Under the pieces are notes generated by a model. It worked only from the letters and a program-made list of their open reading frames with translations. It searched no databases and was not told the DNA's origin. A stretch of 33,296 nt of DNA from positions 1-33,296 of the IMG/VR virus record IMGVR_UViG_3300034111_001253. One strand, given 5' to 3'. The stretch comes from a virus. Both the position numbers and the translations under genes were made by a program. This document shows, piece after piece, positions 17,244 through 19,492 of this stretch (its first letter is position 1; each line of letters begins with the position of its first letter).

Positions 17244-17506
17244 GATGCGGCCTCCTCTGCGGGCGCGGCGAGGCCCTTGGCCCGGGCGTAGCCCACGGCC
17301 ATCTGGACGTGCCGGTCCTCGTATCTCTTTGCCCCGTGGATCCGCACCGGCGGGCATGACTGCGTGGCGAGCTTGACGTGGTACGGGGTCAGCGACACGC
17401 CGAGCGTGGCCAGCAGGCCGGTGAACTCGCCCCACGTCATCCACGACCGCCGCCGGCCGATCCGCCGCATCCGCGTCCAGGTGCTGTGCCACGCCGGCTT
17501 ACTCAT
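17240..17506 (-). CDS. Hypothetical early protein, 88 aa
   Basis: The 88-residue protein begins MSKPAWHSTWTRMRRIGRR and is basic at its N-terminus; the middle (WMTWGEFTGLLATLGVSLTP, YHVKLATQSCPPVRI) looks like a small DNA-binding fold, with YEDRHVQMAVGYARAKGL at the C-terminus. It overlaps the ATPase gene by 8 bases and the next gene by 4. The arginine-rich N-terminus and helical content suggest DNA binding, but no family is identified. Confidence 0.55.
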   Translation of the reverse strand: MSKPAWHSTWTRMRRIGRRRSWMTWGEFTGLLATLGVSLTPYHVKLATQSCPPVRIHGAKRYEDRHVQMAVGYARAKGLAAPAEEAAS

Positions 17507-18404
17507 GGGCCACCTCCTCCACCGGCTCGAGCTCCTGGTGGCGGGCGGCGATCGCGTCGGTCAGGGCCGACCACTCGTCGGCGGTGATCTTGTCCTCGCT
17601 CACCAGCTGGTCGATCCGGTCGCCGAACTTGCCCAGCTGCTTGACGTCCGTCGCCGCGGCGATGTGGCCGCGGATCGTGTCGGCCAGCGTCTGCACCTTG
17701 AACACCGCCTCGAGCTGGGCGATGTCCATGGGCATCTCGGCCGGCAGGCCAAAGCGGTTGCCAGCGTCCCAGGCCGCCGACCGCTCGGCGTACATGATCC
17801 GTTCCTTTCCGCCCCTGCCCTTCTTGCGGCCGTCGGATCCCTCGGCCAGCCGCGTCTTGTAGTTCACGAACAGGATCAAGTCGGCCCACTCCTTGACGAT
17901 CGGGGCGACCTTCTTCGACAGCTTTATTTCAAAGCGGTCGTAGCCCTCATCCATGTCCGGCGGCGTGCAGCGCTTGACCTCGCTGTGGCCGACAAACACG
18001 ACGTTGAGCCCCTTGGCGATCAGCCCGTCGGCGGCGTCGATCAGCTGGTCAAAGGCTTCAGCGAGAATCCCAAACCCACGGCCGTATGGCATCTCATCGA
18101 CCGGCTTTCCCAGCTTTGTCTCCAGGTGAGCCCGAAGCAGCATTTCGGCCCAGTCGATGCTGTCGACGACCACCGTCTGAAACCCCTGCGGGTCGCCGGC
18201 CAGGTCGAGCATGTTCGACAACAGGTCGAGCCACTTCGTGATCCGCACCCGGGCACAGGCGATGCGCCTACTGCCGTTCTCGGTGTCGAGAATCAGAGCG
18301 CCAGGAAACTGGCTGGCCAGCGTCGTCTTGCCAATCTTTTCGACCCCGTAGATCACCGCCGCTACGGGCGATGCCTGAATTCCTCGTTCAATCTTCAGCG
18401 CCAT
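17499..18404 (-). CDS. Sak4-like P-loop ATPase (single-strand annealing)
   Basis: GAGGAGG lies seven bases before the ATG at 18404, inside the end of csrA. The 301-residue protein has a RecA-like P-loop: VIYGVEKIGKTTLASQF with Walker A GVEKIGKTT at about 20-28, Walker B QTVVVDSIDW at about 76-85, and VVFVGHSEVK with the typical sensor histidine of AAA_24/Sak4 proteins. These bind ssDNA and anneal strands in phage recombination, usually next to an SSB, as here. The C-terminus ends with a helical acidic tail. The gene is directly downstream of csrA and may be controlled by it. Confidence 0.75.
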   Translation of the reverse strand: MALKIERGIQASPVAAVIYGVEKIGKTTLASQFPGALILDTENGSRRIACARVRITKWLDLLSNMLDLAGDPQGFQTVVVDSIDWAEMLLRAHLETKLGKPVDEMPYGRGFGILAEAFDQLIDAADGLIAKGLNVVFVGHSEVKRCTPPDMDEGYDRFEIKLSKKVAPIVKEWADLILFVNYKTRLAEGSDGRKKGRGGKERIMYAERSAAWDAGNRFGLPAEMPMDIAQLEAVFKVQTLADTIRGHIAAATDVKQLGKFGDRIDQLVSEDKITADEWSALTDAIAARHQELEPVEEVAHE

Positions 18405-18594
18405 CGTTTGGCCTCCTCTGGTTCCAATCCTGAAAACACATGTCCTTCCAGATCTCCTCCCGGTAGATGTCGACGTCGTTGGGTGCCTTAAACCCCAGTC
18501 GCACCATGCCGGCCGTGATCTCATGCACGACGATCTCGACCCGGCAGTCCGGGATCACGATCGACTCACCCACTCGACGCGACAGCACCAGCAA
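18388..18594 (-). CDS. csrA: CsrA carbon storage regulator
   Basis: The start is a TTG at 18594, six bases after GGAGG. The 68-residue product matches CsrA along its length: MLVLSRRVGESIVI with the RNA-contact region at the first strand, VEIVVHEITAGMVRLGFKAP, and DIYREEIWKD with the conserved Arg45 of the RNA-binding face, plus a longer hydrophilic C-terminus ending GAED. CsrA binds GGA motifs in mRNA leaders and blocks or changes translation. It is uncommon in phages. It overlaps the ATPase gene by 17 bases. The region upstream holds several GGA motifs, so it may control itself. It could also reset host gene expression during infection. Confidence 0.9.
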   Translation of the reverse strand: MLVLSRRVGESIVIPDCRVEIVVHEITAGMVRLGFKAPNDVDIYREEIWKDMCFQDWNQRRPNDGAED

Positions 18595-18602
18595 CGCGCA
18601 CC

Positions 18603-18658
18603 TCCGTGTAAGTCCGGCCGGCTGCGATCCCTCGCCGCCGGCCGGCCACTGCCAATCC
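18603..18658 (-). promoter_or_regulatory. csrA leader with GGA motifs and CsrA-type hairpin
   Basis: Read on the minus strand, the 65 bases before csrA contain four GGA motifs: at 18658-18656, 18630-18628, 18615-18613, and in the ribosome site GGAGG at 18605-18601. The second is the apical loop of a hairpin: an outer stem of CCGGCCGGC (18645-18637) with GCCGGCCGG (18622-18614), an inner GCGA/UCGC stem and a GGGA tetraloop. The last, UACACGGAGGU, resembles the CsrA consensus ACARGGAUGU. Two or more such sites, with one covering the ribosome site, is the typical design of CsrA-controlled messages. Binding itself is inferred. Confidence 0.65.
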
Positions 18659-18659
18659 C

Positions 18660-18992
18660 TCAGCCGCCCGGCGATCCCTCGCCAGACCGGGGTCCATCCC
18701 CATCAACAAACAGCGACTCGCCCCGCTCCGCCCGGCGAGCCATCTCCGACACCTTGTCGCCGCTGCCCGGTGCCGCTTGGGTCGGCACGGCCGCGTCGAT
18801 CACCTTTTGAATCTCGTTCCTGATCTCGACCAGTTCGTCCATCGAGAGGCCGATCGCGTCGTAGAGCAGCGTGCGGTCCCCGCGAGCCGCGCGGGCCGCG
18901 TAGGTCTCGCCCTGGTTGCTCTGTCCGCCGGCCTTCGACGGGTTGCCGTAGAGGCGGATGATCGCGCACAGGTGAGCGTGAACCCGAGCCAC
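18660..18992 (-). CDS. Hypothetical early protein upstream of csrA, about 110 aa
   Basis: The frame is open through to the stop at 18660, but the start is uncertain: GTG 18992 (VARVHAHLCAIIRLYGN) is in frame, a CTG at 19013 just before the upstream stop is another option, and neither has a strong ribosome site. The body contains IIRLYGNPSKAGGQSNQ, GDRTLLYDAIGLSMDELVEI and NEIQKVIDAAVPTQ, mostly helical, and ends with a glycine-rich tail. The frame lies between an HTH gene and csrA in the early operon. No family is recognised. Confidence 0.5.
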   Translation of the reverse strand: MARVHAHLCAIIRLYGNPSKAGGQSNQGETYAARAARGDRTLLYDAIGLSMDELVEIRNEIQKVIDAAVPTQAAPGSGDKVSEMARRAERGESLFVDGDGPRSGEGSPGG

Positions 18993-19009
18993 GCGGTGAA
19001 GCCACAGTT

Positions 19010-19321
19010 TCAGTCGCGGGCAAGTGCCAGGATCGAGGCGGGTACGACGACCGGCCTCCAGCTTCTTGCGCGTCCGACGTGTCGCTTCTGGCGCTCCTTT
19101 TCGGACCACTCGCGCTGGATCTCTTCGCAGAGCTGCCTGATCTGCTCGGGCCGCGGGTCGCCCCAGCCGTCGATTGGCGGCCGGTACTGTTCCTGCCAGA
19201 TGCGCTGTATCCGGCGCGAGATCTCGGAGGTAGTCGTTCCGCAGGCCGAGGCGATGCGCGCGAGCGAGTAGCCCCGCAGCCTCCAGCTCCTGATCTGAGC
19301 GTCCGTCACCTTGACCTTCAT
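19010..19321 (-). CDS. HTH DNA-binding protein, first gene of the early operon
   Basis: AGGAGGT lies four bases before the ATG at 19321, so I choose this start; an in-frame ATG at 19447 without a ribosome site is only about 10 bases after the predicted transcript start. The 103-residue product begins with a homeodomain-like helix-turn-helix: MKVKVTDAQIRSWRLRGYSL, ARIASACGTTTSEISRRIQR, then a basic-acidic helical C-terminus containing DPRPEQIRQLCEEIQREW. It is the first gene after the early promoter and may act as a Cro-like regulator or antiterminator-type factor. The exact role is not shown. Confidence 0.65.
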   Translation of the reverse strand: MKVKVTDAQIRSWRLRGYSLARIASACGTTTSEISRRIQRIWQEQYRPPIDGWGDPRPEQIRQLCEEIQREWSEKERQKRHVGRARSWRPVVVPASILALARD

Positions 19322-19463
19322 CACGACCTCCTGTCTGAGGCGAGGTCGGCCCGGTTGCTCCGCGTCCTGCGGCTGCCATGGCGTGTCCTCGCCTGGTGCT
19401 TCCGTCACGCGGCTGGTACGTCCAGCCTGCGTGGTGGCGTCCGTCATGGACGTCACGGGCGAG

Positions 19464-19492
19464 AGATTACGCGGACGCAATAACTGCGTCAA
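19464..19492 (-). promoter_or_regulatory. Early sigma70-type promoter
   Basis: On the minus strand, TTGACG (-35, 19492-19487) is followed by exactly 17 bases and TAATCT (-10, 19469-19464). Both boxes match the sigma70 consensus well (TTGACA, TATAAT), which is striking at this G+C content. Transcription would start near 19457 and read through the HTH gene, csrA and the recombination genes. The -35 lies inside an inverted repeat. The leader to the HTH gene is about 136 bases. Confidence 0.75.

What the first reader, a model, noticed from the sequence alone, without database searches (positions are those of the whole stretch)
18595..18660. csrA leader looks built for CsrA autoregulation
Four GGA motifs lie within 60 bases upstream of csrA. 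One is the GGGA tetraloop of a hairpin with nested perfect stems, the preferred form for CsrA binding. Another overlaps the ribosome site and extends to UACACGGAGGU, close to the CsrA consensus. A TTG start keeps initiation weak. Together this suggests that phage CsrA represses its own message.
Basis: partly seen in the sequence, partly recalled or inferred. Interest (0 to 1): 0.7.

Follow-up and report, generated by a model that had tools for sequence, protein, structure and literature searches.

The report
CsrA-type leader heading phage operon
The stretch of RNA in front of a phage's own csrA gene folds into a row of hairpins that each display the CsrA recognition letters GGA, an arrangement kept by evolution in dozens of related phages and most likely a feedback brake, although even phages that lack csrA keep a similar one in front of their recombination gene.

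Summary
This is the only cluster of three such hairpins within 100 nt on either strand of the window. About 60 related IMG/VR phage loci carry csrA just upstream of a Sak4-like annealing gene; most have a comparable leader, in two main layouts. Stems covary (16 of 23 pairs show double changes in one layout, 9 of 30 in the window's) while the loop GGA is invariant. Models built from these leaders find unseen relatives in the same place, one per phage. Rfam has no match. csrA leaders of unrelated phages lack it. CsrA autoregulation is the best reading, but it is inferred from sequence; no binding was tested.

About 28 loci without csrA have a similar leader directly on sak4, and no csrA was found in 31 such (mostly partial) records; in a few phages the leader precedes another first gene. 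The element therefore looks like a CsrA-responsive control of the whole operon, autoregulatory when csrA is its first gene.

The parts
18689..18701 (-). hairpin 0: GGGG-AUGGA-CCCC, GGA in the loop; lies in the 3' coding end of the upstream ORF
   Evidence: helix 1 (66% of cells paired; the weakest and least conserved hairpin)
18667..18686 (-). hairpin 1: UCUGGCGA-GGGA-UCGCCGGG, tetraloop NGGA closed by A-U; in the 3' coding end of the upstream ORF
   Evidence: helix 2: 94% paired, 3 of 8 pairs with double changes; loop GGA in 14/14
18651..18664 (-). hairpin 2: GCUGA-GGGA-UUGGC; contains the UGA stop of the upstream ORF
   Evidence: helix 3: 77% paired, 3 of 5 pairs with double changes
18614..18645 (-). 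hairpin 3: CCGGCCGGC.GCGA-GGGA-UCGC.GCCGGCCGG, outside the upstream ORF, just before the ribosome site
   Evidence: helix 4: 93% paired; loop GGA in 14/14
18600..18610 (-). UACACGGAGGU: ribosome site GGAGGU (18600-18605) overlapped by a CsrA-like site
   Evidence: GGA within 22 nt of the start in 14/14 and 19/21 leaders, but a ribosome site favours GGA anyway
18388..18594 (-). csrA, 68 aa, TTG start
   Evidence: Pfam PF02599 68.8 bits; aligns with CsrA/RsmE-type chains in the PDB
17499..18407 (-). sak4-like gene (AAA_24), 302 aa; overlaps the end of csrA by 20 nt
   Evidence: PF13479 155.8 bits; phrog_124 Sak4-like ssDNA annealing protein 162 bits
18660..19379 (-). upstream ORF (mechanical ORF limits; true start uncertain), which ends inside hairpin 2
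   Evidence: same C-terminus in relatives

Best explanation
The 5' leader of the csrA-sak4 operon is a multi-site CsrA-binding RNA. Each hairpin presents NGGA (an ANGGAU loop) to one face of a CsrA dimer; the dimer then bridges to the next GGA and finally to the GGA of the ribosome site, blocking the ribosome. When phage CsrA builds up it shuts down its own translation and probably that of the overlapping sak4 gene, a homeostatic or timing brake on this operon. In related phages without csrA the same kind of leader is presumably read by CsrA from the host. Shown here: presence, predicted structure, covariation, invariant GGA in loops, position at the head of the operon, CsrA family of the protein. 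Inferred: RNA binding, repression, bridging, coupling to sak4, host CsrA.
For: GGA is by far the commonest triplet in hairpin loops of 27 leaders next to sak4 (40 loops; next CGG with 26, which overlaps CGGA, then ACG with 8) and is not among the top triplets in 17 csrA leaders of other phages. Covariation: layout B, 94.6% of cells paired, 16/23 pairs with double changes, 0/500 shuffles as high; layout A (the window's), 87.2%, 9/30 pairs, 0-2/500 shuffles as high. Loops are CGGA/GGGA/UGGA or GGA, GGA invariant in 35/35 rows. Unseen loci are found in place by the models: L260 2e-19, L262 6e-16, L265 1e-14, L271 4e-16, L256 6e-15, L113 3e-11, L143 5e-8. One copy per record in the 15 records that matched. 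Prior fact: E. [quoted passage not shown] dimers bridge sites 10-63 nt apart (PMC7652899). Neighbouring loop GGAs here start 18-28 nt apart.
Against: No binding or expression data; all phages are uncultivated, host unknown. Several stems are 9-13 bp, while most CsrA SELEX winners had four or fewer contiguous pairs (PMC7652899). Hairpins 0 and 1 lie in the upstream ORF, so translating ribosomes may open them. A similar leader is also found where csrA is absent, so control of csrA cannot be its only role. 19 of 43 csrA+ rows of the tree set lack two clear GGA hairpins by my simple criterion, although the models find the element in several of these (L113, L143, L260, L262, L265). The CsrA scores below NCBI's equivalog cut-off (60.9 vs 70.1 bits).
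Confidence: 0.68

Rival explanations
1. The leader mainly lets host CsrA control the phage operon; the phage's own csrA is a later or additional player. Repression by host CsrA would tie the recombination operon to host physiology.
For: 28 of 53 csrA-less sak4 loci carry two or more GGA-loop hairpins directly before sak4 (10 of 30 non-redundant, Fisher 2e-15); no csrA in 31 such records; in the sak4 tree these are interleaved with csrA+ phages (31-row clade: 15 csrA+ and 11 csrA- with leader).
Against: Records are mostly incomplete, so csrA may lie elsewhere. The host and its CsrA are unknown. In most leader-bearing phages csrA is the first gene, which points to self-control there.
Confidence: 0.15
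2. The leader acts in trans as a CsrA sponge, like CsrB/RsmZ: the transcript titrates host CsrA during infection.
For: Four GGA hairpins in about 90 nt resemble CsrB-type sponges; present also without csrA.
Against: It is fused to an mRNA rather than being a free sRNA; the GGA at the ribosome site and the fixed place directly before the first gene fit cis control. No promoter and no terminator in a fitting place was found by consensus scan, but that scan covers sigma-70 types only.
Confidence: 0.1
3. A structured leader for something other than CsrA: ribosome-site control, an RNase site, another protein or transcription attenuation.
For: The folded leader is compact and stable; L097 has a U-run after its leader.
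Against: Loops keep GGA while stems change; the adjacent gene is csrA in most cases; no U-run follows the window's hairpins.
Confidence: 0.06
4. Chance or protein-coding constraint in a G+C-rich genome.
For: Hairpins 0 and 1 are in the coding end of the upstream ORF (DGDGP, GEGSP residues conserved); whole-leader fold energy is not unusual (z -1.6).
Against: Hairpin 3 is outside that ORF; layouts A and B read hairpin 1 in different frames (GDGSP versus TDR) yet keep the same loop; covariation; background 0.5%.
Confidence: 0.01

Closest known systems
Autoregulatory csrA leader of Escherichia coli (PMC7652899, citing Yakhnin et al. 2011)
   Same: Several GGA sites in the csrA leader, one over the ribosome site; predicted translational self-repression
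   Different: Phage gene; most upstream sites sit in their own stable covarying hairpins; operon continues into sak4; similar leader kept without csrA
CsrB/CsrC, RsmX/Y/Z sponge sRNAs
   Same: Row of hairpins showing GGA in the loop
   Different: Cis position before a gene; no Rfam match
glgC-type CsrA target leader (PMC7652899)
   Same: Hairpin GGA just upstream plus GGA in the ribosome site, bridged by one dimer
   Different: Three or more hairpins; conserved as a recognisable RNA family across phages
TwoAYGGAY RNA motif (PMC2864571)
   Same: Its name describes AYGGAY loops; many leaders here have ACGGAU loops
   Different: Listed there for human gut, gamma-Proteobacteria and Clostridiales and not as cis-regulatory; no Rfam match of any kind to TwoAYGGAY here (whether Rfam 15 holds that motif was not checked)
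csrA alleles of Pseudomonas and other phages (PMC7366521)
   Same: Phage-borne csrA
   Different: No leader is described in that paper (term search); I did not compare its individual phages

Membership tests
CsrA/RsmA protein family | CsrA domain over the family cut-off | tested here: met
   PF02599 68.8 bits, cut-off 27
CsrA/RsmA protein family | NCBI equivalog CsrA (TIGR00202) | tested here: not met
   60.9 bits against cut-off 70.1: a diverged member, so filed under the family, not as the equivalog
CsrA/RsmA protein family | RNA-contact residues such as the arginine of the HREE motif (R44 of E. coli CsrA) and the N-terminal LxRR | tested here: met
   YREEIW and MLVLSRR align with HREEIY and MLILTRR of solved CsrA; the importance of R44 is in PMC7652899, the N-terminal residues from general knowledge
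CsrA/RsmA protein family | Dimer that binds GGA RNA | not testable with these tools
   needs protein
Autoregulatory csrA leader | Several GGA sites, one over the ribosome site | tested here: met
Autoregulatory csrA leader | CsrA binding and repression of csrA translation | not testable with these tools
   inferred only
Autoregulatory csrA leader | Leader is found only with csrA | tested here: not met
   also on sak4 without csrA and before other first genes; so autoregulation is not its sole function across the group
CsrB/RsmZ sponge sRNA or other Rfam family | Match to a curated model | tested here: not met
CsrB/RsmZ sponge sRNA | Independent short transcript with terminator | tested here: inconclusive
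   consensus scan shows no promoter and no fitting terminator

The most novel reading that the evidence does not exclude
A CsrA-responsive RNA element is a standard head-of-operon control of the Sak4 recombination operon in a broad group of uncultivated phages. It can be read by the host's CsrA, and many of these phages carry their own csrA as the first gene under it, so that the same switch runs in an autonomous, self-limiting form.
Probability: 0.4. Interest if true: 0.75.

Novelty: new variant of a known kind. Interest (0 to 1): 0.62.

Why it matters
CsrA self-repression is known from E. coli, and csrA genes are known in phages, but what phage csrA does is open. A conserved, covarying leader with GGA in its loops gives that question a concrete handle: the first likely target of phage CsrA is its own operon with sak4. 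Sak and Sak4 are reported to be required for phage replication in Staphylococcus aureus (PMC5499656, title and abstract start only). csrA-less phages with a similar leader suggest that phages may read host CsrA, and so host physiology, to time an operon.

Tried and rejected
Rfam at gathering and permissive thresholds: nothing. Counting the motif GCGAGGGATCGC with mismatches: no excess in the window as bare sequence, so the signal is in structure and position. A first hairpin criterion without mismatches undercounted and was replaced. Isolated phages with close csrA or sak4: none, so no cultured host. Bacterial contigs with sak4 relatives, mostly Verrucomicrobiota: one non-significant leader match (E 0.45), and csrA in only 10 of 96 genomes of that phylum. 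The host could not be settled: terminase relatives are remote and mixed. Considered and rejected: a frameshifted upstream gene; the same ORF arrangement occurs in relatives. Structure prediction of CsrA was not run, since family assignment was clear. Literature: no paper found on a phage csrA leader; only open-licence papers were searched.

Full report
The thing itself. On the minus strand, csrA (18388-18594, TTG, 68 aa) is a CsrA-domain protein (Pfam 68.8 bits; aligned with solved CsrA/RsmE-type chains), though below NCBI's equivalog cut-off. It overlaps by 20 nt a gene for a Sak4-like ssDNA annealing protein. Upstream of csrA lie, in order of transcription, GGGG-AUGGA-CCCC (18689-18701), UCUGGCGA-GGGA-UCGCCGGG (18667-18686), GCUGA-GGGA-UUGGC (18651-18664, holding the stop of the upstream ORF), CCGGCCGGC.GCGA-GGGA-UCGC.GCCGGCCGG (18614-18645) and UACACGGAGGU over the ribosome site (18600-18610).

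More than chance. The leader's energy is ordinary for its composition (z -1.6), and the 12-letter core as bare sequence is not enriched. What is unusual is GGA in loops: the csrA leader is the only place in the window, both strands, with three GGA-loop hairpins within 100 nt. In 4,619 background 150-nt tiles of related loci, 23 have two or more (0.5%). Among csrA+ sak4 loci 38 of 60 do, or 13 of 31 after removing near-duplicates. Leader lengths differ slightly (160 versus 150 nt), which does not matter at this ratio.

Relatives. Scans of IMG/VR with CsrA and with Sak4 gave more than a hundred distinct sak4 loci; csrA lies upstream of sak4 in about 60 of them. Two layouts are common. Layout A, as in the window: two strong NGGA hairpins with a weaker one between. 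Layout B: an NGGA hairpin, a GGA linker, a GGA-triloop hairpin, CAGGA, a third hairpin without GGA, then the ribosome site. csrA genes in unrelated phages (L012-L028) have neither.

Covariation. Layout B (21 leaders): 94.6% of cells paired, 16 of 23 pairs with changes on both sides, covariation score 0.44 against 0.12 shuffled and at most 0.10 when slid. Layout A (14 leaders): 87.2%, 9 of 30 pairs, score 0.25 against 0.135 shuffled and at most 0.09 slid. The weakest helix is hairpin 0 (66%). Loops are CGGA, GGGA or UGGA, or GGA, with GGA invariant in all 35 rows. Hairpins 0 and 1 of the window overlap coding sequence, so part of their conservation could be protein; but hairpin 3 does not, and layouts A and B read hairpin 1 in different frames. 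The structures were drawn from these same sequences before counting, so the slid control favours them somewhat, and related sequences inflate the shuffle test; the independent finds matter more.

Independent finds. Covariance models of the two layouts recovered loci not used in training directly upstream of csrA: L260, L262, L265, L113, L143 (layout B model), L271, L256 (layout A model). In whole viral records, 15 of 26 matched the layout B model, each exactly once. No Rfam family matched.

Models and hairpin counts also point to the 5' side of sak4 in loci with no csrA between. 28 of 53 csrA-less loci have two or more GGA-loop hairpins there. An alignment of 12 shows a similar order: CAGGAGGA, hairpin with GGA, AGGAU, GGA-triloop hairpin, GGAU, long hairpin with GGA in the loop; covariation in this group is modest (6 of 24 pairs). 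The 31 records checked contain no csrA, with the caution that most are fragments. In the Sak4 tree, csrA-less leader-bearing phages and csrA+ ones share a supported clade; distant Sak4 have neither. In L094, L097, L264 and L267 the leader sits about 530-670 nt before csrA, with another gene between (seen in L097); in L125 it precedes a helix-turn-helix gene. So the element belongs to the head of the operon rather than to csrA alone.

Mechanism. Known: CsrA dimers bind GGA in hairpin loops, bridge sites 10-63 nt apart, and in E. coli repress csrA through four leader sites including the ribosome site (PMC7652899). Here loop GGAs start 18-28 nt apart and the last lies over the ribosome site. Most likely, therefore, phage CsrA represses its own operon, sak4 included through overlap. 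Whether hairpins 0 and 1 are usable while the upstream ORF is translated is open.

Status against what is known. Phage csrA genes are on record (PMC7366521); I found no description of such a leader in the open-licence literature. It works like the E. coli csrA leader, but is a distinct, phage-borne, structurally conserved form: a new variant of a known kind.

Noticed in passing
L087-L092, L095, L102, L104, L210-L241: about 150 nt before sak4: GGA-hairpin leader directly on sak4 in phages whose records hold no csrA
   Followed up: yes
L097:1396-1531, L094:1392-1528, L264:919-1058, L267:965-1097: Leader stands 530-670 nt before csrA with another gene between (seen in L097); in L097 it is followed by a U-run that looks like a terminator
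   Followed up: partly
L125:1687-1809 (same contig as L059): Leader-like RNA (R2, E 4e-6) before a helix-turn-helix gene, with sak4 further down and no csrA
   Followed up: partly
window 18660-19379 and 19010-19492, minus strand: Two overlapping ORFs in different frames upstream of csrA; the downstream one is long and intact in relatives too, so probably two genes with unclear starts
   Followed up: partly
L010:about 5001 and about 8550: Two CsrA-domain genes in one phage stretch (79.8 and 44.3 bits)
   Followed up: no
layout B leaders, e.g. L053:2340-2467: Third hairpin with a GA-rich internal loop and no GGA in its loop, conserved just before the ribosome site; role unknown
   Followed up: no
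L156-L198 (genome contigs): Sak4 relatives, mostly in Verrucomicrobiota MAGs, lack adjacent csrA and leader; csrA was found in only 10 of 96 genomes sampled from that phylum
   Followed up: partly
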